DNA of 64,000 nucleotides, taken from positions 2,728,001 through 2,792,000 of the forward strand of contig NC_026744.1 in assembly GCF_000210295.1 (NCBI RefSeq). Reading direction: 5' to 3'. The stretch comes from Trypanosoma brucei gambiense DAL972 (lineage: Eukaryota; Euglenozoa; Kinetoplastea; Trypanosomatida; Trypanosomatidae). Each line of letters opens with the position of its first letter. Position 1 is the first letter of the stretch. The notes beneath the pieces are model-generated. The model saw only the letters and a program-made list of their open reading frames with translations, was not told where the DNA came from and did no database searches. Shown in pieces: positions 15,282-64,000 of this stretch. The position numbers were made by a program, and so were the translations under genes.

Positions 15282-18200
15282 ATGCCCGCATACACTGGCC
15301 TCAACGGCCGTCCGATACCTCCGGGAGCGAAGAGGAGGCGGCACATCACATCTGCCTTGTTCAAAACACCACTCTTGTTGGTACCAGCAATATTTATGAT
15401 GATCCTCTTGTATTATTCCATGCGGTCCGGGCGTGGACATCGCAGAGGTCTACCCGTCCCTTTTTATGATTCTCAAGAGACTACCACCTCGCTAGATGAT
15501 TGGAAAAAGGACCGTTCTTCTTCAGGTATTCCTGGACTGCCACCAATGTCAGATGAGGGAAGGTCCGTTATCATTGTCCCCTGTACCGCATCTGGATCTA
15601 TAAATAGTAAACTCGACGGTCAACAGCAAGTGACCACTGAAGTTCAGTTCTACCGCACGCGGTGCCAACCGGTCGTAGTTGGGAAAAATGATGAACGCAC
15701 GGTGAAGGAAAAAGGTGGATGTAGCGATGATGTGCGCCCCATTGTGAGCATAATTCCAGAGGGTTCAGAAAAGTTGTATTTCCCCAAGGAGGTTCTTCTC
15801 GAGGAGATGGAGGAGGAAGAGCAGGGACCTCAAGACACCGTTGGGAGGTTCCCACAACGTATGGAGAAGGTGTTGTCGGAAGACGGGACGAATGGTTTCT
15901 GGTTGAGTACCTCTTCCTCAGGGCCACCGATTATGCGCTGTGCCTCTCGTGCTCTTGTTGAGCCATTTTTTAGCGCTCCACTAAATCCTCAGCCAAACTG
16001 GATATGGGGCTCAAGTGGTTTTGTTGTTAGTGTCCTTCTGTATACCATTGCCCGCGACGTAGGCAAGGGCGTGGTAGAGGGCTCGTTCACATTTCGTTCG
16101 CGAGAGAAAATTCATTTCTACGGTTTACCCCTTCGAAAGAAGCCGAGCGCAGGTTGGATCGAGGCAGACGACGACGAACTAGACGACGAAGCGGTTACAG
16201 GAGGAACTCTTCCCAGTGGAACTGTGCCACTAGTCTACGCTTTTGGGGAGCGAAGTGTCGTCGGTATTCTGTGGCTGAATGGCTCCCCTTCGCATGCTTA
16301 CACTACCGACACCGCAGATAGTAAGCCTAGTGGGATGCGAGAGCAAACCGTCCACTTCGCCAGTGCCACAGGTGCCACTCGTGTCTTCCTCCTCCCCGGG
16401 CCCACGCTGGAGGATGTGCTTCTGCAGTACTATACGCTAACTGGTTTCCCCGTATTTCCACCTCTATTCGCTCTGGGTTACCACCATCATTCTGTGAGGT
16501 ACAGACATGCGGATGATATATTACATGTGAATCATATGAGTCTAAGCTTACATTTACCTATCGACACAGTGGGAATGAATTTGGGTGCTGTTGCCGCTGA
16601 CGATATCTTTGCGTGGCCGCGAAGGCGTATTGCAGACTCGTTGGAGGTTCAGACGCGGTTGTGGCGGGACGGTGGGCACATTATTGTGCTGGCGGTAACA
16701 CCAACTGTAGTACCCAGCTCTGGTTCAGCGGCATACATAGAGGGAAAAGAAAAGGGGTACTTTATTTTCTCGCCGCTAAAGGAGGGTGCCGCATTTGTTC
16801 ACCTAGTTTCGGGTATAGCGAAGGTGTGGATCGACTTCTTGAACCCTCGCGCAAGGCAATGGTACTCTGAGATGATGGAATTTACACGTTTTGTTGGCTC
16901 CACAAATCTCACCCACTTCTCTCTAGTGGATAATGAGCCGATGCTACCCAGAGTCCTTGGTGGGACCGATGGCGTAACTCTACCGTCATCAGCGCTACAT
17001 TACCGGGGTGTGCGTCACAGGCAAGCCCGAAACGTCTACGGTATGTTACACTCTATGGCCGCATACGATGGGCAACTAAGTCGTACAAATAATGAATATC
17101 GGCCCTTCGTTGTCACGCAGTCGTACTTCGCGGGTTCGCAACGCTACGCTGCGGTGCGGTTGCGTTACCGTCACAGGAGGAATAATGATCTCACCCTTTC
17201 ATGGGCGCGGCTAAGGGAAACGGTGGAATTGTGCATCTTACATAGCATCTCAGGCCTTCCTTTTGTTGGGCCTGATATTAATGTCCCCGTGCCCAACTCC
17301 TTCTGGGGAAAGAAAAACTTTGACGAACTACAGGTGCGGTGGTATCAGCTTAGTGCGTTCCTTCCATTGTTCAGGAGCGACATGGATGTGCGGCCGCGGC
17401 ACGCTACGATACTTGAGTTCCCTAAACGTACCATCTTTCGTATTCGCGAGGCTGTTCTATTCCGGTACACTCTTTTGCCTTACTACTATACGCTGTTCTG
17501 GAGGTCACATCTATACGGGGAACCCATCCTTCGCCCAGTATTTCTTCCGTATGAGAAACGGGGCCCACCCCCGGAGAAAGGAGTGGCAATGTCGAAGGAA
17601 TCTTTCTTTGTGGGCCCAGACCTTTTTGTGGCTCCGGTGCTGTCCGCTGTGGGGGAGGAAACCGCGTGGCGGAAGGAACCGCACCATAGGATACGTCTTC
17701 CACCCAATGACCTCTACTACGACTACTGGACTGGTGCTCTTCAGTACCAAGGAGGATTGGTAAAGGAACCCGCATGCATACGCTTCGACAAAAACCCACC
17801 ATTTGCCGAAGCGAAGCATGTGGCACCGTTGTTTCTGCGAGTAGGTTCAATTCTCCCAACCTTCACTCAGACACGAACAATGCGTAGTTCCCATGATCCG
17901 GCAAACTACACGCTTACTATTGCACTCCCGCAGCTGACGTCGGAACTCTTATGGGCAAGTGAGCCCGTGAACTCCAGCGACGGTAGGTTGCTTGCTGAAG
18001 GTGAGTTGTTCGTGGATGGTGGCGACAACTACGTAGACTACAACAATCATTCCACAATACGCAGTGACTTCTGTGCCCTTCGGTTGGAGTGCCGGTTATT
18101 TCCTCACTCGTACCGTATGGAAGTGCGATTGAAAGCGACGGTTAACTCGTCGTGCGGTAAAGCTGTAGAGGCGCTGAAGGCTAATTTGGTGGAGCTGGAT

Positions 18201-18449
18201 GACCCTAATGTATATGTTATTGATCGGCTGCGGTTATTGTTTGCGTCACCAAGCGAGAGTAGGTTTTTGGTGAGGGGTTTGCCCGCGGCCAGCGAAAACG
18301 GTCGACAGGAGCAGATGCAATGGAAGGTGTCCTACGGGGAGATTGATGATAACGTGGTGGAAGTGCATAATTTCTTTGTGCAGCTGTCGGATTCTCTTTC
18401 TAACGAGAATACAACTCATGTGATCGCTGCATTGGATTTGAGGTTATGA
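15282..18449 (+). CDS. GH31 alpha-glucosidase homologue, type II membrane protein, probably catalytically altered
   Basis: 1055 residues. A basic cytoplasmic tail (GAKRRRHITS) precedes one hydrophobic segment at about 29-47, typical of a type II signal anchor in ER or Golgi. The body follows glucosidase II alpha: FPVFPPLFALGYHHHSVRYR (start of the catalytic barrel), DFLNPRARQWY, NEPMLP, GSQRYAAV, and LQVRWYQLSAFLPLFR, then the C-terminal beta domains. The -1 subsite residues diverge: the WLD Asp is Asn433, the nucleophile motif DMNEP reads VDNEP (residues 549-553), the conserved substrate Arg is Gln613, and the His of FFRxH is Asp700. An Asp636 with correct spacing to Trp may keep the acid/base. 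Known active members trim glucose from N-glycans. This one looks like a pseudoenzyme or a hydrolase with changed specificity. Confidence 0.85.
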   Translation: MPAYTGLNGRPIPPGAKRRRHITSALFKTPLLLVPAIFMMILLYYSMRSGRGHRRGLPVPFYDSQETTTSLDDWKKDRSSSGIPGLPPMSDEGRSVIIVPCTASGSINSKLDGQQQVTTEVQFYRTRCQPVVVGKNDERTVKEKGGCSDDVRPIVSIIPEGSEKLYFPKEVLLEEMEEEEQGPQDTVGRFPQRMEKVLSEDGTNGFWLSTSSSGPPIMRCASRALVEPFFSAPLNPQPNWIWGSSGFVVSVLLYTIARDVGKGVVEGSFTFRSREKIHFYGLPLRKKPSAGWIEADDDELDDEAVTGGTLPSGTVPLVYAFGERSVVGILWLNGSPSHAYTTDTADSKPSGMREQTVHFASATGATRVFLLPGPTLEDVLLQYYTLTGFPVFPPLFALGYHHHSVRYRHADDILHVNHMSLSLHLPIDTVGMNLGAVAADDIFAWPRRRIADSLEVQTRLWRDGGHIIVLAVTPTVVPSSGSAAYIEGKEKGYFIFSPLKEGAAFVHLVSGIAKVWIDFLNPRARQWYSEMMEFTRFVGSTNLTHFSLVDNEPMLPRVLGGTDGVTLPSSALHYRGVRHRQARNVYGMLHSMAAYDGQLSRTNNEYRPFVVTQSYFAGSQRYAAVRLRYRHRRNNDLTLSWARLRETVELCILHSISGLPFVGPDINVPVPNSFWGKKNFDELQVRWYQLSAFLPLFRSDMDVRPRHATILEFPKRTIFRIREAVLFRYTLLPYYYTLFWRSHLYGEPILRPVFLPYEKRGPPPEKGVAMSKESFFVGPDLFVAPVLSAVGEETAWRKEPHHRIRLPPNDLYYDYWTGALQYQGGLVKEPACIRFDKNPPFAEAKHVAPLFLRVGSILPTFTQTRTMRSSHDPANYTLTIALPQLTSELLWASEPVNSSDGRLLAEGELFVDGGDNYVDYNNHSTIRSDFCALRLECRLFPHSYRMEVRLKATVNSSCGKAVEALKANLVELDDPNVYVIDRLRLLFASPSESRFLVRGLPAASENGRQEQMQWKVSYGEIDDNVVEVHNFFVQLSDSLSNENTTHVIAALDLRL

Positions 18450-25190: not shown

Positions 25191-25730
25191 ATGCTTCGGT
25201 TCACTCATAGGGCTCTAACAGCTACTCCCGAACGCTTCTCCGTGCTAGGTACGACGCATCCCAAACCCAAACGCACTGGCTTTGGTCGTAACAACAAAAT
25301 GCGCTCGAAACCTAGTGACAATGTAGCGTGGTATGACAAAGGCCCGGTTGAGTGGCTCCCTCGCCCTGTTAGACTTACTTATGACCATCTTGATCAACTC
25401 CAGCAGTGGACGATGCGTGCTACGCTCGACGGGCGAACGGAGGAGTTTAATCGCATCCGGGACCTTCACCGCGAGTGGTCGCAGCACCCGCTCATGCCAG
25501 TTCTGGGCGATGTGGAGCCAAAGTTTCCCCTCAACTTATTCAAGCAAAATCACAGAGCGAAGAAGCGTTTCTTGGTGCGGTGGCATAAAGCTAATACACC
25601 AGCGAATTGGCTGTGGATGCCACGCGGCCCGACGGTTGTCACCCCTCTGCACCGCACCAACCCAACGCAGTACCCGGAAAATTGGAAGCAAATGGTGCAG
25701 AGAAAGTCTGGAACAGGCACCCCTTCGTGA
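25191..25730 (+). CDS. Small basic protein, candidate mitochondrial ribosome component
   Basis: 179 residues from ATG 25191 (the frame extends to a GTG at 25185). The N terminus MLRFTHRALTATPERFSVLG is Arg-rich and amphipathic with no acidic residue until the Glu about 14 residues in, a good mitochondrial presequence. The mature part is basic and Trp/Pro-rich (WLPRPVRLTYDHLDQLQQW, KRFLVRWHKANTPANWLWMPRGP) without recognisable domain. Size, charge and targeting match kinetoplastid-specific mitoribosomal or ribosome-assembly proteins. This is inference from composition only. Confidence 0.6.
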   Translation: MLRFTHRALTATPERFSVLGTTHPKPKRTGFGRNNKMRSKPSDNVAWYDKGPVEWLPRPVRLTYDHLDQLQQWTMRATLDGRTEEFNRIRDLHREWSQHPLMPVLGDVEPKFPLNLFKQNHRAKKRFLVRWHKANTPANWLWMPRGPTVVTPLHRTNPTQYPENWKQMVQRKSGTGTPS

Positions 25731-26198
25731 TGACTCTTCGATTGCTTTTATTTGTACTCGGGTTTAGCGAAGTGTGTGTGTGTGCTTGTGTATGTGTGTG
25801 TGTGTGTGTGTTTAGCTTTCCTTTAAGGGACGAGAAGGAGGAGTTGCCATTGGTCTATTGCGTGCCATCTACAGGTTCTAACCACCTGCGCATACATTGA
25901 GGAAGTGTCTGTATTCCGATTTACCGCGGTACCACAGAAAAATTGCTAAGCGTATTGCACTGTCATACCGTATGTTTCACCGCCGGCCTTTCTCTACCTT
26001 ATGCTGTTGACTTGTTTTGTGGTTGTAAAAGGGTTGTGTTTATAGGGGTTCTAGCGAAGGAGGGGGAACCCACGCAAGGGACGAGTCAAGGATACATTAG
26101 AGATAACATATAGTATTGCGTGCTTGATACGGGCGTGTTGGTCTACCTGAGCTGGTGTCGATACATAAAAAAAGCATAAATAGACTAGACATAAAAAC
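25731..26198. other. Intergenic region with GT repeat
   Basis: Holds an imperfect GT microsatellite at about 25771-25811 and no supported gene. Confidence 0.7.
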
Positions 26199-26769
26199 AT
26201 GAGCACGCCATGCAATATTCGTGATGCATTAGCTTTGCAGTTTTGTTGGGTGAATGTCCTGGTGCGTCGACGAAATGGCCATTACACATCATTTGCGCGC
26301 GTACGGGCGGCGTTATTTGCCAGCATGCATGCGTGTTTTATAGTTACACTACTGTTTTATTTTGTTTTTGAACCTTTTTCTTGGGTTCTTGCCTTTCTTA
26401 TACAGTTGATCCTCTTCATTATTTCAGTCGTACACACCGCTCTGATCTCCGAGTACGAAGAGCGTCTAAATAATGCAATGGAGCTGGAGAGACAGCTGAA
26501 CCCTCTCATCATCGCCGAATTAACTTTTCGTTGCTTCAGTCTGTTCCACTTGTATTTGTTGCACTGATGGTTCGCTTTTGCCGTCAGACTGCTTGGAGCC
26601 ACTGCACAATTACTGGTCCTATCGTAGAGCACATTTCCTGGTGGATGCAGCAACAACATGGAAACAATTAGGTTCTTTGAGGACGGATGCCCGTCTGCGG
26701 CTGATGATCCAAGGTCTGTTGTTGATACTCACCTTCGCATACCTTACGCTCGCTCTGTTACCAAACTAA
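26199..26769 (+). pseudogene. Cornichon/Erv14-family cargo receptor, disrupted by in-frame TGA and +1 frame change
   Basis: Two frames together cover a cornichon protein. Frame A (26199-26567) ends at TGA after a segment with the family pattern: a first hydrophobic helix, ISEYEERLNNAMELERQLNPLI and the helix ELTFRCFSLFHLYLLH. The same frame continues past the TGA with WFAFAVRLLGA, which fits the WFxF..... helix of Erv14 and CNIH4. Near 26601 the match moves to the +1 frame: LHNYWSYRRAHFLVDAATTWKQLG and a final helix LMIQGLLLILTFAYLTLALLPN, ending TAA at 26769. Skipping one base there gives the exact family length across the junction. Cornichons are three- to four-span ER export receptors. The N terminus is about 50 residues longer than in yeast. 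Explanations are a decayed gene, assembly errors, or recoding. Confidence 0.7.
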
Positions 26770-27725
26770 GACAGAAGTTGCAACGCTTAGGTTTCTGTCA
26801 TCTTTCCTTCGCATATTTTGTCTCAAGTGAGCGGAGAGATCCTTGACGAGTGTGCCGCTAATTGCACTCGGTGCGGCAAGGGATGAGAAAAGTGAAGGAG
26901 CCAATCCAGTTCATTGTGGTGACTTGGTGTCGTTAGCGTCACATGGATATGCTTCACAGCCTCCAAGTTGTCCGCGTGTTTGGTTAACTCTTTATTACCC
27001 CTTTCCCCCGACTGCGGATTCGGAAGGAAAAACTGTGGTAGCGTTCGGACGGAAGAAATGAGCGGAGGCAAATGGTGTGTTGATTTTTGGCAGTCGTGCC
27101 ACACTTTGGTTTTGCACGTAACAAGCCTCCTTCATTTATTCTTTGTTTAATATTTTTGTGTGTTACACATCACTTCGCCTTGTCGCACCGTTATTATCCA
27201 TTACTGACTTCGAAACACATCGTCCGCAGTTGGATTGTCACTTTCTGTTTTCGTGGCGACGGAAGCAATTCTTTCCTTCACCCCACATATTTATTACGTT
27301 ATAGCGGGGACCGAAAGGGAACTGTGTGAGTCAGTTGGTTGCTTTTGCTTGTGAAGGGGAAGGAGGATGGCTGTATCTTATGGAGTTTTGTGTGGGAGCT
27401 TGTTTACCCTACTGGTTGTTATTTGTGGTGGAGGTGTTGTGCCTTACTACTCACTGGCGTGCCGTTTTCTCTTTTGAATTTGGTGATGCAGAAAAGAAAC
27501 AAGGTGATCATCGTTTGGATCGGTCAATGCATAAATGTTAGGAGAGTTGTGTCTGTACCTTTAACTATTCTGTATACCCGTTGTGATGTGCGCTTGCTAT
27601 ATTTCCTCGCTTTCCGCCTTAATTACCTTATATCTCACATACGCGCAGTGATATAGTCTGGGAGTGTGAGTGGAGTTCCATTGGACATCAGGGTTTGTAC
27701 GGCGACGAACTCGAAAAAAGTGACA
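26770..27725. other. Intergenic region
   Basis: About 0.95 kb, moderately T-rich, with no convincing gene. A pyrimidine-rich stretch at about 27596-27645 ending in CGCAG (27648) is a likely acceptor for the RPA12 gene. Confidence 0.6.
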
Positions 27726-28181
27726 ATGAGTGCACCAATGGCTCGCAGGGATTACTTTTCTATGGGATCGCGCTGCTGCATCGCATGCGGGCAATGGATC
27801 CCGTCTGAACACGACATGCCTCGGAGTGGAAGTGCTGCAGCTGGAGGTTTGCAGTGTCGGCGATGCAACGTTGTGCAGCCGGAGCGCCCCATGCCTGATT
27901 TTGAAAAAGCTTCGGAGGTAACAACAGCAGCCCTTCTTTTTACAAAGGCAGAAATCGACGCTGCATGGAAAAGTGTGAAGCATTCCCTTGAGGAGGCGAG
28001 GAGGGAAGATGTTGGTGTTGCCCAGACGGACAATCGTGTTGAGGAGGAGGCGTTCTGCGAGAAATGTGGTGTGCCACGCAAGTGTAAGGTGTTTGCGCGG
28101 CAAATACGTAGTGCCGATGAGGGTCAAACAGTCTTCTACCAATGCACCTCGTGTGACTCGGAGTGGCAGCTCAACTCATAA
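27726..28181 (+). CDS. RPA12: RNA polymerase I subunit RPA12 (TFIIS-like zinc ribbon)
   Basis: 151 residues from ATG 27726 (the frame opens at a GTG, 27666). N-terminal zinc ribbon: CxxC at residues 18/21 (CIACG) and a second pair in LQCRRCN. C-terminal TFIIS-type ribbon: FCEKCG and CTSCDS, bracketing QIRSADEGQTVFYQC. The RSADEGQTVFY sequence is the signature of RPA12 rather than RPB9 or RPC11, and the Asp-Glu pair needed for RNA cleavage in TFIIS-type ribbons is present. RPA12 supports termination and transcript cleavage by Pol I. In T. brucei Pol I also transcribes VSG and procyclin genes, so this subunit serves surface-coat expression as well as rRNA. The linker between ribbons is longer than in human. 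Confidence 0.88.
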   Translation: MSAPMARRDYFSMGSRCCIACGQWIPSEHDMPRSGSAAAGGLQCRRCNVVQPERPMPDFEKASEVTTAALLFTKAEIDAAWKSVKHSLEEARREDVGVAQTDNRVEEEAFCEKCGVPRKCKVFARQIRSADEGQTVFYQCTSCDSEWQLNS

Positions 28182-28814
28182 CTTGTGAGCTTTCCTTTAG
28201 TAGCACATAAGTTGGAGGAAGGGGCACGCGGATGTGAGTGTACTCCACGCTTCTTTACAAGTTTATAACATAAGGTAAACACGGCGTGCATGAGGATACT
28301 CCAGCGTTTTGAGACACCGTTTAAAGCATGCGGCCCATAGCTCTATTTGCAACCTTTGCACAGCCATTACGTTGTGTAATGGGCCTTTGGGCTTTTCGGT
28401 GTAGTCTTACAGGTCTACTCTCGTTTGACCTTTGGCATTTGAGCGGGTTGTAAGTGTGCTCGGGATCTCGTCTCGTTAATGTGAGAGTTGATACACATTT
28501 CCACACTGTCTGCCTTCGTTCTTTGCAATTGCCTGATCTAACTGTGACCTTCCTTGCAGCAGTCTAATTTTATTTTGAGTTCACTTTTACCGGTGTTGGC
28601 GGGCGCTTTCTATCGCTGCAACCATTGGCAGAGAGTAGACACAGGCCGTTAAGGTAGCAAAGAAACAGAGAAAGGGAGGTTAGAAAGCTTCAGTTCGAAC
28701 CGCTCGTGTACCTTGACATCTGAGTTTCTGGTGGTTTGAGTAAAAGACTGCACGACGAAAGAGAGCAGTGGTATTGGGAAGAAAAAAAAAGAGAACTTTA
28801 GCTTGTAAAGCACC
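28182..28814. other. Intergenic region
   Basis: No gene and no outstanding repeat. A weak pyrimidine-rich segment lies at 28555-28615. Confidence 0.6.
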
Positions 28815-31771: not shown

Positions 31772-32202
31772 GTGATGTACCAATGCTATGCATGGTATTT
31801 ACAGTCACTTAGCTTTGGGGTGCCGGTGGCTCGTGTAATCAGCACCTACTTGTAGCACTAATTAGTAATAACTTGCGCCCCCCCCCTTGTACACCTGGAT
31901 AAGCTTTTACAAGGGTTTTCAGCCTTAAAATTTGATCTCCTACTCCATTCTTTCGCTTTCGGTGCATGGGCTTCACTGTCTCTTACTTTCCTTGGAATGT
32001 GCGAATCAATGCACTTGAATATTTTCCTTTTATCTATCTCTCTGCGTCTCTTCTTTCCATGATTCAATTACGCCGCTTTATGCGTGGTTTGCCAGTGTTG
32101 TTGACAACCGGACTTGAAGTATCACGGGGTGGCAATTGGTGAATATCGTTGGATTGCCGAAGCACTCGTTACTGTCACGACGCTTGCGCCAAAAAGAAGC
32201 CT
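31772..32202. other. Intergenic region
   Basis: Contains a short C run at 31877-31884 and a pyrimidine-rich block at 31965-32060. No gene is seen. Confidence 0.6.
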
Positions 32203-33384
32203 ATGCACGCGACAGTCACTGCCACACAACATATCCTTCAGTCGGTTACCACTCACAGATACGAGCTTGTTGCAGTGTTAATCAGTGGTATCGTTGCCTA
32301 CTTTGCTACCGTGCGTTTTGTACAGGGGGCCCGCATAAAGCTAATACAAAGAAGGCTCTGCGGAATAGATATTAATAAAACAACGCCGGAGCAACGAAAG
32401 AAGATTGCATCGAAACCGTATGACGAGCTAGACGAGGGCGAGAAGCGACTCGTCGTGCCGGAGTCATTTGGCATTCTTGCAGGTGCTGTGTACCTCTCTG
32501 CCGTTTTGATAACCACTTCTGTGACCTTTGGTAGGGTCTCCCGCCAACTGGATGGATCAGTGACTTCCATTGCCGTTATGCTCCTTCTTGGATTTGTAGA
32601 TGATGTGCTCGACCTGCGTTGGAGGTACAAAATACTTCTCTCGGCCATAGGCACCATCCCACTTGTCATGACGTACAAGGGAAGCCTCGAGGTCATCGTT
32701 CCCCGCCTCCTCACACCTTACCTTGGTTCACCCACGCTGTACCTCGGTGTCTTCTACCTTGTGGGTCTGTCGTTGTTGTGCATCTTCTGCACGAACAGCA
32801 TAAATATTCTCGCTGGTGTTAATGGTGTGGAAGTAGGGCAAAGTATTGTGATTGCTGTGGCATCTATAGTGCACTGCATTATGCAGATGCGTCTAGAAAG
32901 TGATCCGAGCTACGGTGGACCTGCCACCTCAGGGCAACTCCTAGCCATTGCGCTGCTCGTACCGTTTGTTGGTGTGAGCGCTGCCCTCTGGCGTTTCAAC
33001 TCGTACCCTGCTTCCATATTTGTGGGTGACAGTTATACATATTTCGCAGGCACTGTCCTTTCGGTCGCTGGCGTAACAGGTGTCTACAGTAAGACACTCA
33101 TGCTCTTTTTCGTGCCACAGCTTGTTAACTTTGCAATTTCGCTTCCGCAGCTACTGCGAATCGTGCCATGCCCCCGCCACCGCGTTCCTCGGTGGGACAT
33201 GGAGAGGGACGTCATGCAGAACAGTGGTAATTACACGCTGTTGAACGCCATCTTGCTTCTACGTGGTGATATGCATGAGCGGGATTTGACGCGTGCGGCG
33301 TTGAAACTACAGGTTGTCTCTTGCATAGTTGCGATGTTCGCAAGATACTTCCTGGCTTCCCTCCTGTACGACCACGTCTACTGA
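32203..33384 (+). CDS. ALG7: UDP-GlcNAc:dolichyl-phosphate GlcNAc-1-phosphotransferase
   Basis: 393 residues from ATG 32203 (the open frame begins at a TTG upstream). This polytopic ER enzyme makes GlcNAc-PP-dolichol, the first step of N-glycan precursor synthesis and the tunicamycin target. All family landmarks are present in order: a first membrane span (LVAVLISGIVAYFATV), LLLGFVDDVLDLRWRYK (catalytic Asp pair), TNSINILAGVNGVEVGQS, SIFVGDSYTYFAGTVLSVAGV, and PCPRHRVPRWD. About ten hydrophobic spans can be counted. Length is close to human DPAGT1. The product feeds the lipid-linked oligosaccharide pathway that glycosylates the VSG coat. Confidence 0.93.
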   Translation: MHATVTATQHILQSVTTHRYELVAVLISGIVAYFATVRFVQGARIKLIQRRLCGIDINKTTPEQRKKIASKPYDELDEGEKRLVVPESFGILAGAVYLSAVLITTSVTFGRVSRQLDGSVTSIAVMLLLGFVDDVLDLRWRYKILLSAIGTIPLVMTYKGSLEVIVPRLLTPYLGSPTLYLGVFYLVGLSLLCIFCTNSINILAGVNGVEVGQSIVIAVASIVHCIMQMRLESDPSYGGPATSGQLLAIALLVPFVGVSAALWRFNSYPASIFVGDSYTYFAGTVLSVAGVTGVYSKTLMLFFVPQLVNFAISLPQLLRIVPCPRHRVPRWDMERDVMQNSGNYTLLNAILLLRGDMHERDLTRAALKLQVVSCIVAMFARYFLASLLYDHVY

Positions 33385-34394
33385 TTAATAAAAAAAAGAG
33401 GTGATGTGGTCACATGGCGTATGTAACGACTTCAATTTGGGTGCAACTGCAGTTACCGTGTCTGTTACGCTGTGTGAGCGGGGTCATAAGGATAGAAGCT
33501 AAACTCTGCTCTCATTTATGCCACACGCTATATACTATTCAGGAGGATAGTGTGTGGTAAGTGCGGAAGGAAGGCGCTTCTACTTGTTGTGTTGCATCAC
33601 TGAGGGAAGGAAAAGGTTGGTCGAAGGGATGCAGAAGAACTATCCTCTATGCCAAAGCAAAGTACTCTCTTTGTGTGGTTATGGTGCGCGTAGCCACTAA
33701 CGACTTTCAGATCAGTTTGAGTGGGCTCATTGCTTTGGGGTTCCCAACTTATGATTAAGTACTATGGTGGGCGATTGCTAAAAAAGGTTCGCAATGGGTG
33801 CCTGCACTCGTGCAAGAACAAGTTAGCGTGCTGCCAACGCTTAGATTTGCCTAATAGCATATTGTATTATTACAGGGTTATAATACCGATCATACTGACC
33901 GTCAACGCCGTCTCTCCCTGTGCTTATCGCAACCATAACAAGCCGTTACTTGAAATAAGCTCATGGCACTGTTATCACTTTCTCATTAACTTGCACTGGT
34001 TCACTCAAATATATATTTCCTCCCTATTCGCATATATGTTAATGAATGAACCTTTAAGGCAATTTTGGCGACCCGCATCCTCGGGAAAAGGGTCGTAGCT
34101 ACATACAAGCCGCGACACCGAACTGAGTTCCGCCGAGAATACATGTAAGTGCCCTCATCACCGAAATCGACAGAAGAGTAGTTCACACGCCAAGGACATC
34201 TTCTCGCACGCGCCCACCCACGGGGGCTGGAAACGATATTAGGGAACATTTTTGAGAACCAACGAGGTGGTAAGGTGTGTGGCAAAAGGAATATTAAGTT
34301 TTTAACTGCATACCTATTTTGTATGTCTGCCGGTAGTGCCGCGTCCCATCCGGTGGCGATCCATGCTGGAAACAGTCGCAGCGGTAGTTTCACA
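33385..34394. other. Intergenic region upstream of PSF2
   Basis: 1 kb without a supported gene; open frames such as 33721-34098 have no motifs. A pyrimidine-rich stretch at about 34290-34330 followed by GGTAG (34336) is the likely acceptor for PSF2. Confidence 0.6.
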
Positions 34395-35255
34395 ATGTAT
34401 CACTTTGCCTCCTTCGCCGCTATGGAGGTCACAGTGACGATTGTGCCTCGTTTCACCATGCCACGCATTTCAACTGCATTCGGTGGTCGCTACGGGCCCT
34501 TTACACCCAACTTCCCCACCGATGTGCCGCTGTGGCTTGCGCTCCACATCCGACAGACGGACACTTGCACTATTCAACCGCCGCCCTACGTCGCTTTGCC
34601 GCATCTTCGCCAGGTGCTGGAGAGAGAGAAGGAAAATGAAACAACATTCGAAGCACTTCCCTTCTACTTCTTCGAGGTGGTCAAGAAGTTGTGCGAAGTC
34701 AGTGCCGCTGCGGAAGATGTTCCACATGTAGCGGAGGTAGTGCGGCTCGTTGATGAAGTGCGTGCAGTGCGGAGACGGAAACTCCAACAGAGCATGTCAG
34801 TGTTTGAAGCGGAGGGATCACCCGTGTTTATACCCGGCATTAAGCTATCAAATATCGTGAACCACGAACTTCAATACTTGCGCACGTCCTTTGCAATAGT
34901 GCTACAGCAGTCTGCAGATATGAAGCAGAGACGAGAGCAAGACATTGGTGGACCCATAGAAAGCGTCCCAACACCCATCCGAACAAGTGGGACGACGCTG
35001 TCGTATACGCCCCTGTCAACAGCCGCTGCAGCCGAGGCGCGTTTGTTGGATTACGCAGGAACGAGGAGTAGCGACACACACGACTCTCTGTCAACCTCAG
35101 CAGCAGCGGAGCAGGCAATATTTACCCCTGAAAACACTTTCACAACCGACAGTGCCCCGTCGGTTGCTGGTGCGACGGAAACGGGAACGGCGAGCATGTC
35201 AGAGGAGATTTCAGGACCACCAGTGAAGAAGCGGCGGACGCTAAGACAGACGTAA
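34395..35255 (+). CDS. PSF2: GINS complex subunit PSF2
   Basis: 286 residues from ATG 34395; an earlier in-frame ATG at 34323 would add 24 residues but lies before the likely splice acceptor. Residues about 14-30 (TIVPRFTMPRISTAFGGRYGPF) and 38-46 (VPLWLALHI) match the PSF2 N-terminal domain, followed by the helical GINS A domain (VLEREKENETTFEALPFYFFEVVKKLCE, VAEVVRLVDEVRAVRRRKLQQS) and IKLSNIVNHELQYLRTSF. GINS joins CDC45 and MCM2-7 in the replicative helicase. Human PSF2 ends near residue 185; this protein continues for about 110 residues of Ser/Thr/Ala-rich sequence and ends in KKRRT, a likely nuclear signal. Confidence 0.85.
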   Translation: MYHFASFAAMEVTVTIVPRFTMPRISTAFGGRYGPFTPNFPTDVPLWLALHIRQTDTCTIQPPPYVALPHLRQVLEREKENETTFEALPFYFFEVVKKLCEVSAAAEDVPHVAEVVRLVDEVRAVRRRKLQQSMSVFEAEGSPVFIPGIKLSNIVNHELQYLRTSFAIVLQQSADMKQRREQDIGGPIESVPTPIRTSGTTLSYTPLSTAAAAEARLLDYAGTRSSDTHDSLSTSAAAEQAIFTPENTFTTDSAPSVAGATETGTASMSEEISGPPVKKRRTLRQT

Positions 35256-47765: not shown

Positions 47766-48632
47766 ATGCTCCGTCGCAGTGGTTGCTTCCTCAACATGGG
47801 GCTGGGGGACGAGTACGTGAAAAAGGTGTTCAACAGCGTGTCCAGCAAGTATGATATGATGAACGATGTTCTTTCGCTTGGCATACACCGCCTGTGGAAG
47901 CGCGAATTTGTCCGTGACTACGTACGACCGTGCCCTGGTGGATCGTACGTTGACGTCGCTGGAGGTACTGGCGATATTGCCTTTCGCATAATTGATGAAG
48001 TGCGCCAGTTGGAACGGGGACTTCCAGGCCTTACACCTCCCGACTTTCGAGGAGTTGGCGTGACGGTTGTGGACATAAATGAACAGATGGTTCACGAGGG
48101 AGAGGCCCGGGCAGCGCGGGAAGGATATGATGGTTTGGAGTGGATTGTCGCCAGCGGGGAGGAGCTTCCGTTGGATGACATGCAGTTCGATGGCTATACG
48201 GTATCGTTTGGCCTGCGGAATTTCAGTGACAGGCCGAAAGCCCTTCGAGAAGCGCATCGAGTGCTGAAAGTGGGTGGTGTACTGAGCGTGCTGGAGTTTA
48301 GCAAAGTCACGTGCTCGCTGCTGCGCGTGCCTTACGACGTGTGGTCTTACGGTTTCATTCCACAAGCCGGACGGATTTTGGCAAATGAGGAAAGCTATAG
48401 GTACCTTGTGGATAGCATTAGAGCCTTTCCCGATCAGGAGACCCTAGCAGAGATGATTCGGGAGGCGGGATTCGGTTACGTGAGGTATGATAATCTCTCT
48501 GGCGGAATCGCATGTGTACACACCGCAGTAAAAACGGAGGCTGTTCCAATGCATAAACCTAAGTCAGAAGTAGAAAACGCTATGGCGCAACAGGAGCGAG
48601 TGGTAGAAGACAGTAAAGTGGGGGCTGCATAG
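47766..48632 (+). CDS. COQ5: COQ5/UbiE C-methyltransferase of ubiquinone synthesis
   Basis: 288 residues. It C-methylates the polyprenyl-benzoquinol ring using S-adenosylmethionine in the mitochondrial matrix. Both UbiE/COQ5 signatures are present: YDMMNDVLSLGIHRLW (residues about 35-50) and RVLKVGGVLSVLEFS (about 166-180). The SAM-binding motif I reads VDVAGGTGDIAF (about 62-73), and VVDINEQMV gives the acidic residue of motif II. The short N terminus MLRRSGCFLN is basic and probably part of a mitochondrial presequence. A C-terminal tail of about 35 residues beyond the family core is charged and probably disordered. Length is typical. Confidence 0.93.
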   Translation: MLRRSGCFLNMGLGDEYVKKVFNSVSSKYDMMNDVLSLGIHRLWKREFVRDYVRPCPGGSYVDVAGGTGDIAFRIIDEVRQLERGLPGLTPPDFRGVGVTVVDINEQMVHEGEARAAREGYDGLEWIVASGEELPLDDMQFDGYTVSFGLRNFSDRPKALREAHRVLKVGGVLSVLEFSKVTCSLLRVPYDVWSYGFIPQAGRILANEESYRYLVDSIRAFPDQETLAEMIREAGFGYVRYDNLSGGIACVHTAVKTEAVPMHKPKSEVENAMAQQERVVEDSKVGAA

Positions 48633-49479: not shown

Positions 49480-52400
49480 ATGTTCAATGTCTCACCAGCG
49501 AGTCGTGACCGCGTGCGTTCTGAGAGTCAGCGCACCCCGCGCCCCCGCAGCTCACTCTCCATGCCACGTGAATTGTCCTACACACCCGCCATATCTTCCA
49601 TTCCTTCAAGCCTGCACACACCGTTTATTCAAAAGTGCTACGTTCAGGGGGACAATTCCACTGAGGGTCAGCAGCAGCAGCAGCAACCGCCTGATCACAT
49701 GACTGTCGTATTTGAAAGTGATAACATGCAACTGACAACAACAAGTTTGCTCGGGAAAGGTGGGTTTGGTCGAGTGTACGTGGCCCAGTCAAGTGGCGGG
49801 GAGCTGTGCGCCTTGAAAGTATCGTCGAAACAAATGACGGATGGTGACTGGGAGCGGTTGCGCAAAGAGGTGGCGCTTATGAGTCACTTCTCGCAGCACC
49901 CCAACGTGGTGAAGCTAATTGCTGCCGGTCGAGATAGGAATTTCGCGTATGTGGCGATGGAGTGCTGTGCGAGTCGGTCGCTGCATGACATTATTAACAA
50001 ACATGGTCTCGAAGTGCCAGAAATTTTGTGGGTCGGCTATGCACTCATTGATACAATCGCCTTTCTGCACGCCAAGGGTTGCATACACCGGGACCTAAAG
50101 CCACAGAACCTTTTGTTTGACTTCGATGGAAACCTGAAGATAAGTGATTTTGGACTTTCAAGCAACGTTACCGAATCTGAACCACGGAAGACGGTTGCCG
50201 GGACGGCAATGTATATGGCACCCGAAATTGCTGGCGCAGTGTATAAACGCATGACCAACGATAACAGCTCTAGTTCGCTGCGCTACGGTCAGGAGGTCGA
50301 CACATGGAGCATTGGTGTGGTGTTGTACGTCATGTTGACGCGCATGAACCCGTACGCGCAGGCGCTTGAAAATGAAGGTGCACACGAGATGAACAAGACG
50401 CAGAAGACACTCACCTTATTTAGTGCGGTTGCGGGGGCCGCTTGGCACTGGCCAGCGGGTTGGAGAGGCGACAAGGAACTAAGTGATGTTGTCAATCAAA
50501 TACTGCATCGGAATCCAGATCAGCGAGCCACGCTACAAGATATACTGCAGCACCCTGTTTGGGACCGACGGCCGCTTTCGTGTCCGCTCACGCTGCTGCA
50601 AAAACTGAATTTAGTTGAGCGACGACCGTTTACCCGAACCGGAGCGGTAGGCCGCTCATGCAGCCGTGCCCCTGAAGGTATGCAGCCCCAATATGCCACC
50701 AAAACGGCAGAAGCTGTGCTCCTAGAGGGGCTAAACCAAGTGATTCAAGTCGAAGAGAGCACTCGTACTCAACTCGTCCTTGAAAGCAATGAGGTGATAA
50801 ATCTCATATTCGGAACCCTGAAGCTGCATGCCTCAGAGGCTAACGGAAGGCGGTTTATTGTGATAGATGAGAAAGGTTGCCGCAAGAACATCGAAGACAT
50901 GTTGCTGACCACTCGCCCGGTGCGTTGTCGCAGCCATGAGTTAGTGTCGACAGCGGTGTGTACAAAACAGCCCAAACGTGGAACAAGGGTCGGTTCCTCA
51001 TTAAGGCCGCAAAGGGAATCCAGTGTTTTGTTGGCGGGTCCATTAGCTTTCGGTCAGACTCAAGATGCTGGAGAGATTGTCCGCGCAACGTCTGACAGGT
51101 ACGCTGTGGTGTACAGTGGACGTGAAACCTCCACACGGTGGTCTCTCCGCAATGTCATCTCACTCCCTCGAGAACTTAACGCTGCAATTGAGGATGTTAC
51201 GTGCATTAACAAACACCAAATGAAGAAACTTATCAAAATACCCTTGGGTTATGTCGGGTTTGATTGCAACGTATGCGATAGTGCGATTGATGATATTAGT
51301 ATCGAGAAACCAGTTTTTCGATGTCATAAGTGCGACTACGACCTCTGCATGAATTGTGCTTACCAGGGAAAAATAAAGGACGTTAACTTTGTTTGTGTTT
51401 CATGCATGAAAAAGTTTGCGTCCTCTTCAAAGCTCGAAGCACATTCAGCTAAGTGCCGTGGCCCAAGCATGAGCCCCTCGGTACGCTGCTCTTCCCGTCG
51501 AAACACGATGCTTTGGGAGCAATTGGAAAACGAGGGTGGAAGTTTGCTGGATATCCGGTTGCCTACCGAAACTAAACCGCGACGTAGTGCCCGTACATCT
51601 TGCCGTACCTCCGGTGGTCGAGAGTCGTCGGGTGGTCGCATTAGTATTGGTGACAGCTATGTACCAGGACCGGAGGACTTAGGCACAATGGTAGTAGCGC
51701 ACCGTGACGCCAATTTCCCTGAAATGCCAAAATTCTCCACTCAGAGCGATAGCAAGGCAAGCTCCCCTTTCGGTGAGAAGGAGGGCGCTGATAAAAATTA
51801 TAAGCAGAGTTTCTCCTTTGAACTTCCCCCTCAGGTTCGGCTCTCTAAACATCGTAGGGAAAAGGGAGCGGAACCACGGAGTTCGGAAGAATTGCGCGAG
51901 ATTGTAGATGAGCTTACGCCAACACCTAAAAGGGTGCGTACAGAAGCACGGCAGAATTCTTGTGAGCCATATGCTCCCCAAGTGAATGACGCAGGCTTGG
52001 TTGTCGGCATTGCTGCGCGGTCTCGTGTTGAAAGGGAGGGAAGTCTGCGTGGGGAACAGCAGTCCCGTAACGTCGTAGTAATCCGTGCAGACAACGCGGC
52101 GAAACCACAAGACCTGCGAAAGCAGTCTCAGGTTCCTCGAAGCGCTTCGTCAAGTCAACCTGGTAGTAGGATGGAGTCGCAAGCCATCGATACTCTCTTG
52201 AAGCCGGCCCCTAAGAATGTGGCAGTACGAGAGTATCGGTCCGCGTCCGGCCAGCGCGATCCACTGGTGCCGAGAACGTCACTGCCTTCAGCTCAGACTG
52301 GAGAAATTTTCGGTGCACCGCCTCTCCCACGAATCGTCACCTCCGGGAGGTCTAGCGTACCACGTTCAATGTCGTACACATTGCCATCTGCTGCTGGTGT

Positions 52401-53259
52401 TGCGCGACGCCAGACATCCCAGCCTTTAGTGAACTTACTTGGAGGGGTCCCCGTCGGGGCGTATGGGGGCGGATCTTTCAACCCCGGCGAGCGCAATGCT
52501 TCCATCAGCAACACCAACAGAACTGTTGGACCGGGGCAAGGTGGGACGGCGTACCTGGCCCTTCCTCGGGACAAGCAAAACCGGGATCGCTTTGTTGATG
52601 ACTTCCTAAGCGGGGCGTGGGTAAGGGTTTACTCTTTCATTGGTTCTGAAGTTGTTGTGATGTATTATTCTGTGCAACCCGGTAGGTACGGTGCCCTCTT
52701 CCCCACAGAGGAGGGAGCAGCTACGGCAGTTCTGGACATACACTCTAAGTTGGTGCTATACGTGCCGCGTATGGATAAGGATACCGTTACTCGGACCCAG
52801 TGCCATCCGAATGTTCTAAGTTTCTTTCAAGACGAAATACGCATTCTACCCGCTACAAGTGCAGAGAAAACCCTCGGTGATGTGCTTCGTGGCATAATGG
52901 GTTTCGTTAGTGAACTTACGAAATGTCGTGGGGAGGGAGAAAAGTATGCAGCAGCGCAGTCTGCATACATTCACCAACGTGAGAAGGGTGCGGTCCCCGC
53001 GGGCACAAAGTTCGCGTATGTGAGAAAGGCGTTCCCAGATCCAGCAGGCTCTTTCGTGTTGTTCCGTTTGTCCAACCTGCGGTCGCAGGTAGTTTTTAAC
53101 AACGCACTCCTAGACATCCGTTGGCAAAGCGACAAGAACCATAATGTTGGGCAAAAGTACTACGTGCGGCCCAACGGCGAGGCCGGACCATTTACTGCGG
53201 AGCACTCAGGTATCCTCAATCACGTAAATTTGGTGATGCGCAACGTCTACCGGAAATGA
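49480..53259 (+). CDS. KKT2: Kinetoplastid kinetochore protein kinase KKT2
   Basis: 1259 residues. The architecture identifies KKT2: an N-terminal kinase domain, a central zinc-binding centromere-localisation region and C-terminal divergent polo boxes. Kinase landmarks: glycine loop GKGGFG (92-97), Lys113 in ALKVS, Glu130 in helix C, HRD 203-205, DFG 223-225, APE 247-249, so it should be active. Residues about 570-665 hold paired Cys/His motifs (CINKHQM, CNVCD, FRCHKCDYDLCMNC) followed by a C2H2-like finger (FVCVSCMKKF...HSAKC). The region about 1035-1259 resembles two polo boxes (YGALFPTEEGAATAVLDIHSKLVLYV and FVLFRLSNLRSQVVFNNALLDI). KKT2 sits constitutively at centromeres and recruits other KKT proteins. 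The paralogue KKT3 is shorter; length 1259 favours KKT2. Confidence 0.9.
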   Translation: MFNVSPASRDRVRSESQRTPRPRSSLSMPRELSYTPAISSIPSSLHTPFIQKCYVQGDNSTEGQQQQQQPPDHMTVVFESDNMQLTTTSLLGKGGFGRVYVAQSSGGELCALKVSSKQMTDGDWERLRKEVALMSHFSQHPNVVKLIAAGRDRNFAYVAMECCASRSLHDIINKHGLEVPEILWVGYALIDTIAFLHAKGCIHRDLKPQNLLFDFDGNLKISDFGLSSNVTESEPRKTVAGTAMYMAPEIAGAVYKRMTNDNSSSSLRYGQEVDTWSIGVVLYVMLTRMNPYAQALENEGAHEMNKTQKTLTLFSAVAGAAWHWPAGWRGDKELSDVVNQILHRNPDQRATLQDILQHPVWDRRPLSCPLTLLQKLNLVERRPFTRTGAVGRSCSRAPEGMQPQYATKTAEAVLLEGLNQVIQVEESTRTQLVLESNEVINLIFGTLKLHASEANGRRFIVIDEKGCRKNIEDMLLTTRPVRCRSHELVSTAVCTKQPKRGTRVGSSLRPQRESSVLLAGPLAFGQTQDAGEIVRATSDRYAVVYSGRETSTRWSLRNVISLPRELNAAIEDVTCINKHQMKKLIKIPLGYVGFDCNVCDSAIDDISIEKPVFRCHKCDYDLCMNCAYQGKIKDVNFVCVSCMKKFASSSKLEAHSAKCRGPSMSPSVRCSSRRNTMLWEQLENEGGSLLDIRLPTETKPRRSARTSCRTSGGRESSGGRISIGDSYVPGPEDLGTMVVAHRDANFPEMPKFSTQSDSKASSPFGEKEGADKNYKQSFSFELPPQVRLSKHRREKGAEPRSSEELREIVDELTPTPKRVRTEARQNSCEPYAPQVNDAGLVVGIAARSRVEREGSLRGEQQSRNVVVIRADNAAKPQDLRKQSQVPRSASSSQPGSRMESQAIDTLLKPAPKNVAVREYRSASGQRDPLVPRTSLPSAQTGEIFGAPPLPRIVTSGRSSVPRSMSYTLPSAAGVARRQTSQPLVNLLGGVPVGAYGGGSFNPGERNASISNTNRTVGPGQGGTAYLALPRDKQNRDRFVDDFLSGAWVRVYSFIGSEVVVMYYSVQPGRYGALFPTEEGAATAVLDIHSKLVLYVPRMDKDTVTRTQCHPNVLSFFQDEIRILPATSAEKTLGDVLRGIMGFVSELTKCRGEGEKYAAAQSAYIHQREKGAVPAGTKFAYVRKAFPDPAGSFVLFRLSNLRSQVVFNNALLDIRWQSDKNHNVGQKYYVRPNGEAGPFTAEHSGILNHVNLVMRNVYRK

Positions 53260-62703: not shown

Positions 62704-64000
62704 ATGCTGTTCAAACCTCGTGGTGTCACCAGCAACGATCCAAGATATGCTGGCGGGTCGCGGCTAATGTCTGTGTCGGATCTTCTTGCGTACCGTGACA
62801 CGTGGCGCGGGCGACCACCTACTGAGAGTTTTTCACTAGCCCAAATTCTACGAGATGCACGCGCAGCGGATTGTAAGCCCGTTGTGACAGAAAAACTTGT
62901 CATGTCGGAGAACGGCTTCAAGGTTAAGTCCCGTGACTCAATTGATTCGTTAGAGCGTGGCGTAAGAGCAGTGCAATCTGCCCTCAACAAACTCACTGAA
63001 TGGAATTTTGACGTGGTAGTGCAGACGGTTCTCACGCCAGATATTATTATAAACAACGAAGTAGTGAAGGATGTTGTTCGCCTTATTTACGAAAAAGCCC
63101 TTATGGAGCCAGTGTTCGCTGGGCTCTACGCGCGGATGTGCTATTCAATTGTTCGTTTTGAATATGAGTACCGTACTAAGTTTCTTCCGGGAACGTGTCA
63201 GGTGCCCAGTGCCGTGCGTGTGGCGATCGTAGAGAAATGCCAACAAATGTTTACTAACGCGGTAGAGGAATCCAAGCAAACCATGTCGGAAGAGCAGGCC
63301 GAGAGGCTGCGAAAAAGGAATGTGAACAATATCAAATTTGCTGGTGAGCTCTTTCTTAAAACACTCATCACGCAGAAGATCATTGATCGTATTCTGAACG
63401 AAAGAATATATGAAATGGTTCCCAACGATATGGAACTGGAGGTGATAATTAACCTCTTGGAGGTTGTTGGTAAATTATACGAAGAAAAGAATCCGGACGC
63501 ACAAGAACAGCTGTGGAAAATGCTCTCTAGCATGCAGGAGAATCGGCGCTACTCCATGCGCATACGTTTTCTCCTCCAGAACCTCATTGATCGACGTAAC
63601 GGTGGATGGAAACCGCGAGAACCAGAACAAGTCGTTATCGAGGATATTCAATCTCAGCAGCAACCTCAACAGCAGTCTCAACAGCAACAGCAACAACAAC
63701 AACAGCAGCAACCTCAACAGCAGCCTCAACAGCAACAGCAACAACAACAACAGCAGCAACCTCAACAGCAGCCTCAACAGCAACAGCAACAAGGTCAGAA
63801 GCACTATTCCCAACAACAACGACACCAGCAAGGTTTCCCACACCACAACCAACCTCAGTCACATGGAGGATATCACCAGCATCCGCCACCACCGCCACCA
63901 CCGCCACGTAACTCCGAATACCAACACACGCCGGGGATGAAGCGAGGTGGCAGCTATCATGAAGTTTCGAGCTCACTTGGAATGGGTGGGCGGTGTTCCC
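62704..64000 (+). CDS. EIF4G4: eIF4G translation factor, probably EIF4G4 (3' end beyond window)
   Basis: 432 codons visible, truncated by the window edge. Residues about 85-300 form an MIF4G domain: AVQSALNKLTEWNFDVVVQTVL, IYEKALMEPVFAGLYARMCYSIVRFEYEYR, NNIKFAGELFLKTLITQKIIDRILNERI, and SMRIRFLLQNLIDRRNGGW. Its position near the N terminus is typical of trypanosomatid eIF4G proteins. Upstream, MSVSDLLAYRD (residues 22-32) resembles an eIF4E-binding motif Y(X)4L-hydrophobic with Met in place of Tyr. After the domain comes a polyGln/Pro tract (about 316-365), then Gly/His- and Pro-rich sequence. The paralogue number rests on recalled gene order near KKT2, not on sequence proof; EIF4G3 is the main alternative. 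Function: scaffold of the cap-binding complex. Confidence 0.82.
   Translation, partial: MLFKPRGVTSNDPRYAGGSRLMSVSDLLAYRDTWRGRPPTESFSLAQILRDARAADCKPVVTEKLVMSENGFKVKSRDSIDSLERGVRAVQSALNKLTEWNFDVVVQTVLTPDIIINNEVVKDVVRLIYEKALMEPVFAGLYARMCYSIVRFEYEYRTKFLPGTCQVPSAVRVAIVEKCQQMFTNAVEESKQTMSEEQAERLRKRNVNNIKFAGELFLKTLITQKIIDRILNERIYEMVPNDMELEVIINLLEVVGKLYEEKNPDAQEQLWKMLSSMQENRRYSMRIRFLLQNLIDRRNGGWKPREPEQVVIEDIQSQQQPQQQSQQQQQQQQQQQPQQQPQQQQQQQQQQQPQQQPQQQQQQGQKHYSQQQRHQQGFPHHNQPQSHGGYHQHPPPPPPPPRNSEYQHTPGMKRGGSYHEVSSSLGMGGRCS
63650..63797 (+). repeat. CAA/CAG repeat encoding polyglutamine in eIF4G
   Basis: Mixed CAA and CAG codons with occasional CCT (Pro), organised as two nearly identical blocks of Gln runs separated by QPQQQPQQQ. 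The block structure suggests a past in-frame duplication. Likely polymorphic in length. Confidence 0.9.

What the first reader, a model, noticed from the sequence alone, without database searches (positions are those of the whole stretch)
26199..26769. Cornichon/Erv14 gene split by an in-frame TGA and a +1 frame change
Seen directly: two overlapping frames each encode half of a cornichon-family protein. The match to Erv14 and CNIH4 runs through a TGA (26565-26567), continues in the same frame with a WFxF helix, then jumps +1 near 26601; skipping one base restores exact family length at the junction. Known: cornichons are ER export receptors for membrane cargo and are normally intact. Inference: either a recent pseudogene, an error in the assembly, or recoding. 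The regions on both sides remain family-like, which argues against long decay. If T. brucei lacks another intact cornichon, cargo export would have to work without it or use recoding.
Basis: partly seen in the sequence, partly recalled or inferred. Interest (0 to 1): 0.82.

Follow-up and report, generated by a model that had tools for sequence, protein, structure and literature searches.

The report
Interrupted copy of a cornichon gene
A gene for a membrane-cargo receptor is interrupted in this trypanosome assembly, but a close relative carries it whole and a second, intact cornichon gene lies on the same chromosome, so it is most likely a local sequence error or a very recent broken copy, not a new way of reading genes.

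Summary
ORF 26199-26567 (122 aa) matches Pfam Cornichon (48 bits, cut-off 29.2) and ends at TGA 26565-26567; a second frame ending at 26769 carries the rest (21 bits). A 189-aa protein named from T. b. equiperdum is identical at 129/132 and 58/58 positions. The visible differences (residues 119, 123, 130; frame change at 132) fall within 44 nt; four random events cluster so tightly about 2 times in 1000. Conserved columns are kept as in that relative (36 of 40 in both): not old decay. Nineteen of 20 related proteins are full length. No sign of recoding: no SECIS match, no unusual fold, no shared interruption. Best reading: an ordinary cornichon orthologue with one clustered lesion, either a local error of an eight-fold capillary assembly (about 50%) or a recent mutation (about 45%). 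Raw reads would decide; none were available. Low interest.

The parts
26199..26567 (+). ORF A: N-terminal two thirds of a cornichon-family protein (122 aa) ending in TGA
   Evidence: Pfam PF03311, 48 bits; identical to P0001 except residue 119
26565..26567 (+). in-frame TGA, at residue 123 of the intact relative, between modelled helices 93-120 and 124-143
26568..26627 (+). zero-frame continuation, family-like for about 9 codons, then out of family to TAG 26625-26627
26592..26596 (+). place where the match passes from the zero frame to the second frame
26524..26769 (+). open stretch of the second frame; family-like from 26593 on (residues 132-189 of P0001, 58/58 identical)
   Evidence: (21 bits)
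26656..26670 (+). position aligned with the COPII-binding motif IFRTL of yeast Erv14, beyond the stop
   Evidence: alignment of profile A1 to ERV14; role of IFRTL from passages of PMC10022740

Best explanation
This is the local copy of a kinetoplastid cornichon/Erv14-family ER cargo receptor whose reading frame is interrupted by one tight cluster of differences within about 44 nt (a stop, two other changed codons and a frame change). At protein level the rest of the gene is unchanged against a close relative, so the interruption is either a local sequence or consensus error of the assembly (slightly favoured, about 50%) or a very recent mutational event in this strain or one of its alleles (about 45%). 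It is not programmed recoding and not an old pseudogene. If real, the mRNA would probably still be made and translated only to the stop, giving a 122-aa product without the last two modelled helices and without the segment aligned with the COPII-binding motif, expected to be inactive as a receptor. Shown: frames, homology, clustering, an intact relative, the second cornichon. Inferred: error versus mutation, and the inactivity.
For: Both frames match one intact 189-aa protein at 129/132 and 58/58 positions. The four visible differences fall in 44 nt of 571; chance 0.0016 for that span, 0.0023 for the wider span first used. Conserved columns (same residue in at least 18 of 20 proteins) are kept 36 of 40 in the window, as in P0001. 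19 of 20 proteins found with the profile are 185-192 aa long, among them T. congolense, T. vivax, T. cruzi and Leishmania. One DNA copy found in its genome. In-frame stops are rare in control families of this assembly: 1 of 130 kinase, 0 of 76 helicase and 0 of 93 RRM matches. DAL972 was sequenced to about eight-fold by capillary reads and assembled with Phrap; 281 contigs, 22.1 Mb, were ordered (passages and section 14 of PMC2854126). PMC8445201 section 23: nearby allelic variants made INDEL errors in a collapsed T. brucei assembly; six genes with allele-specific premature stops kept their transcript levels and lost translation downstream.
Against: Against error: the assembly paper reports manual base checking and finishing, the window has no N, and the spot is more than 26 kb from either window edge, so no gap or contig end is visible. 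The amino-acid changes are not an excess: mean Ka of 0.0068 between Tb927 and DAL972 (passage) predicts about 3 in a gene of this size (my arithmetic). Against stepwise mutation: two disabling changes within 44 nt with no other visible change. No DNA of an intact T. brucei relative was available, so silent changes are unseen, and intact copies in T. b. brucei were not shown.
Confidence: 0.93

Rival explanations
1. Local sequence or consensus error in the assembly, for example poor reads or two alleles merged badly.
For: Tight cluster of substitutions plus a frame change in coding sequence that is otherwise unchanged at protein level; eight-fold capillary draft; INDEL errors described for a collapsed T. 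brucei assembly (PMC8445201 section 23).
Against: Manual finishing reported; no N in the window; in-frame stops are rare in control families, 1 of 299 matches.
Confidence: 0.5
2. Real, recent loss-of-function allele in this strain: one complex mutation, or two mutations, broke this cornichon paralogue, heterozygous or fixed in the asexual T. b. gambiense group 1 lineage; the other cornichon or bulk flow carries the cargo.
For: Full-length proteins elsewhere in Trypanosoma; a second cornichon exists; [quoted passage not shown] PMC8445201 found 123 putative genes with different coding lengths between alleles in Lister 427 (section 23).
Against: Clustering and the lack of any other visible change fit stepwise decay poorly; the second cornichon is only 22% identical.
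Confidence: 0.45
3. Programmed recoding: ribosomes pass the UGA and change frame, or shift +1 once in the overlap 26524-26567, to make a full-length product.
For: The second frame is open across the TGA from 26524 to 26769, so one +1 shift would reach the C-terminal part.
Against: A single shift at or before the UGA would replace the family-like stretch after it by a more polar one (mean hydropathy 0.37 against 1.47 over 8 codons); the route that keeps the family sequence needs two events about 25-30 nt apart; 19 of 20 related proteins are full length (a database biased to open frames); no SECIS match in 25700-28800; RNA fold not unusual (z -0.82, 43 of 200 shuffles as stable).
Confidence: 0.015
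4. Old, decaying pseudogene.
For: Stop plus frame change.
Against: 187 of 190 compared positions identical to an intact relative (129/132 and 58/58, one position shared); conserved columns kept as in that relative.
Confidence: 0.02

Closest known systems
P0001, 'Cornichon protein' [Trypanosoma brucei equiperdum], 189 aa
   Same: Identical at 129/132 and 58/58 positions; same start; Pfam Cornichon 86.5 bits
   Different: One uninterrupted frame; the window differs at residues 119, 123 and 130 and by a frame change at 132
Yeast Erv14 (PDB 32pz) and animal CNIH proteins (PDB 6peq, 7lep, 9ovv)
L001, the second cornichon of the same genome, 183 aa
   Same: Pfam Cornichon over profile 3-121 of 122 (77 bits); intact ORF
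   Different: 22% identity over 130 residues; a separate paralogue

Membership tests
Cornichon/Erv14 family (PF03311) | Pfam score over the curated cut-off | tested here: met
   Piece A alone 48 bits against 29.2; piece B alone 21 bits, below the cut-off but in the fitting part of the profile, 76-119
Cornichon/Erv14 family (PF03311) | CNIH fold | tested here: inconclusive
Cornichon/Erv14 family (PF03311) | COPII-binding IFRTL motif | tested here: inconclusive
   The aligned stretch is TWKQL in P0001 and piece B: position kept, letters mostly not; in the window it lies beyond the stop
Cornichon/Erv14 family (PF03311) | ER-Golgi cycling and cargo binding | not testable with these tools
   Needs experiment
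Functional (intact) cornichon gene | One open frame over the domain | tested here: not met
   TGA at 26565-26567 and frame change at 26592-26596
Programmed recoding (selenoprotein, +1 frameshift) | Interruption conserved in relatives | tested here: not met
   19 of 20 related proteins are full length; the database holds predicted proteins, so it favours open frames
Programmed recoding (selenoprotein, +1 frameshift) | SECIS element for UGA as selenocysteine | tested here: not met
   One Rfam match up to E 1 in 25700-28800, a miRNA model at 23 bits against a cut-off of 90; that Rfam holds SECIS models is recalled

The most novel reading that the evidence does not exclude
In this lineage a single +1 ribosomal shift in the 26524-26567 overlap, perhaps at the UGA itself, makes a full-length cornichon with an altered start of the fifth modelled helix, or the stop is used to make a short 122-aa form.
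Probability: 0.015. Interest if true: 0.75.

Novelty: new member of a known kind. Interest (0 to 1): 0.15.

Why it matters
If the interruption is real and fixed in T. b. gambiense group 1, a conserved ER cargo receptor paralogue has been lost in an asexual pathogen lineage, and cargo that uses it must travel otherwise. If it is an error, it is one more doubtful gene in the assembly. Neither changes the understanding of recoding.

Tried and rejected
Second DNA copy in the same genome: none found (one match, itself). Repeats that could have templated the cluster: none in 26450-26720 with seed 7 and minimum length 9. Selenocysteine: no SECIS match. RNA or DNA structure as stimulator or as cause of poor reads: not unusual (z -0.82 and -0.92). 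Codon-usage frame scan of the window: 27 segments called, 25 on the + strand; no + segment has an in-frame stop (stops were counted on + segments only) and no frame switch was called. It does not call the cornichon gene itself, so it is a weak control for short genes. The three control families count matches, not genes, and count stops, not frame changes; 120 of 190 kinase candidates were scored.

Literature: full-text searches for 'trypanosoma brucei' + 'cornichon' (0 papers), 'trypanosom' + 'erv14', 'cornichon' + 'trypanosom', 'cornichon' + 'leishmania' and 'trypanosoma brucei' + 'CNIH': no listed title or abstract start concerns this gene; none of these papers was opened. Papers seen: PMC2854126 (outline with abstract, passages, section 14), PMC8445201 (passages, section 23), PMC4288722, PMC4739771 and PMC10022740 (passages). 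Whether T. b. brucei TREU927 has an intact copy was not shown: the cluster P0001 holds 3 sequences on 7 contigs, but only T. b. equiperdum is named in the listing.

A slip mended: the hydropathy figure for the second frame was taken in the wrong frame; redid it (0.37 against 1.47). The conclusion and the odds did not change.

Full report
What is there. ORF 26199-26567 encodes 122 residues and ends in TGA 26565-26567; the zero frame goes on for 19 codons to TAG 26625-26627; a second frame is open from 26524 to its stop at 26767-26769. Pfam Cornichon (cut-off 29.2 bits) matches piece A at 48 bits, piece B at 21 bits (profile 76-119, below the cut-off on its own), and piece A read past the stop with X at 55.6 bits.

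An intact close relative. The protein search with piece A gave one protein at E 0.001 or better among 6 candidates: P0001, 189 aa, named Cornichon protein of T. b. equiperdum. It is identical to the window at 129 of 132 positions in the zero frame (the stop, given as X, counts as a mismatch) and at 58 of 58 in the second frame (the stretches share position 132). The differences are at residues 119, 123 (the stop) and 130, and the frame change is at 132: within 26553-26596, 44 nt. Four random events in 571 nt fall within such a span with probability 0.0016 (0.0023 for the 48-base distance first used), and three codons within 12 of 189 with probability 0.010. Proteins only were compared; no trypanosome DNA other than this genome was available, so silent changes are unseen.

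No decay elsewhere. Of 40 columns with one residue in at least 18 of 20 related proteins, the window keeps 36, the same as the intact relative. The number of amino-acid changes is not unusual: mean Ka between Tb927 and DAL972 is 0.0068 (PMC4288722, passage), or about three in a gene of this size by my arithmetic. What is unusual is their position and that two of the events break the frame.

Orthologues. Searches with P0001 and with a seven-sequence profile found 7 and 20 proteins; 19 of the 20 are 185-192 aa long. Those named by their sources are from T. congolense, T. vivax, T. cruzi, T. rangeli, T. conorhini, T. theileri, T. melophagium, T. grayi, T. b. equiperdum, Leishmania species and Novymonas; five (P0007, P0016, P0018-P0020) have no name. 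The exception, P0020 (134 aa), lies on a 907-base contig and lacks the N-terminal part. The database holds predicted proteins and so favours open frames; it could miss other broken copies. The gene is a conserved kinetoplastid cornichon with about 55 residues ahead of the domain.

A second cornichon. The same genome has one other match to the family, C11:4307058-4307417(-), within an intact ORF of 183 aa, Pfam 77 bits, with Erv14 its only match in the PDB sequences up to E 1 (E 3.1e-04). It is 22% identical to P0001 over 130 residues. The organism is therefore not without a cornichon, although the two may serve different cargo (inference).

Which organism. The genome holds 22,148,088 bases in 11 contigs. 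The T. b. gambiense DAL972 paper gives 281 contigs, 22.1 Mb, ordered against T. b. brucei 927 (section 14 of PMC2854126). I take the window to be DAL972; this is inference from size and contig number. That assembly is about eight-fold capillary sequence assembled with Phrap, with manual base checking and finishing.

Error or mutation. For error: the tight cluster in surroundings unchanged at protein level, the draft depth, and the report that nearby allelic variants led to INDEL errors in a collapsed T. brucei assembly (PMC8445201, section 23). For mutation: manual finishing, no N in the window, and real alleles with premature stops in T. brucei (123 putative genes with different coding lengths between alleles in Lister 427). 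Stops inside control families are rare in this assembly: 1 of 130 kinase matches, 0 of 76 helicase matches and 0 of 93 RRM matches (299 matches in all, not genes; 120 of 190 kinase candidates were scored; frame changes are not counted by this measure). I put error at about 50% and a real recent allele at about 45%.

What a truncated product would lack. In the AlphaFold2 model of the intact relative (mean pLDDT 73, seven sequences) the helices are 7-22, 31-54, 58-89, 93-120, 124-143 and 157-186; the TGA falls at residue 123, between the fourth and fifth. [quoted passage not shown] A 122-aa product would lack this and the last two helices. PMC8445201 found transcript levels unaffected and ribosome occupancy falling after such stops, with no sign of re-initiation, in six genes (section 23). 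The product is expected to be inactive (inference).

Recoding. One +1 shift between 26524 and 26567 would reach the second frame, but would replace the family-like stretch after the stop by a more polar one (hydropathy 0.37 against 1.47 over 8 codons). Keeping the family sequence takes two separate events. None of the related proteins found shows the interruption (with the bias named above), no SECIS match was found in 25700-28800, and the local RNA fold is not unusual. I regard it as very unlikely.

Verdict. An ordinary, conserved cornichon gene, interrupted in this assembly by one clustered lesion; probably an error or a very recent allele. Low interest until reads are checked.

Noticed in passing
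window 26564-26587: A short hairpin (arms 26564-26570 and 26581-26587) has the TGA in one arm and codon 130, one of the changed codons, at the edge of the other; it might favour mutation or poor capillary reads, but the fold is not unusual against shuffles.
   Followed up: partly
G000:C4:1413012-1413785 (-): A protein-kinase domain match with one in-frame TGA, the only one of 130 kinase matches with a stop inside.
   Followed up: no
window 27666-28181, 32149-33384, 34275-35255, 15282-18449, 47766-48632: Neighbouring open frames with Pfam matches: TFIIS-type zinc ribbon, glycosyl transferase family 4, GINS subunit PSF2, glycosyl hydrolase 31, UbiE/COQ5 methyltransferase.
   Followed up: partly
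window 49480-53259: The kinase match at C11:2777738-2778559 falls in this 1259-aa ORF.
   Followed up: no
window 62704-64000: ORF running off the window with a long glutamine/proline-rich tract.
   Followed up: no
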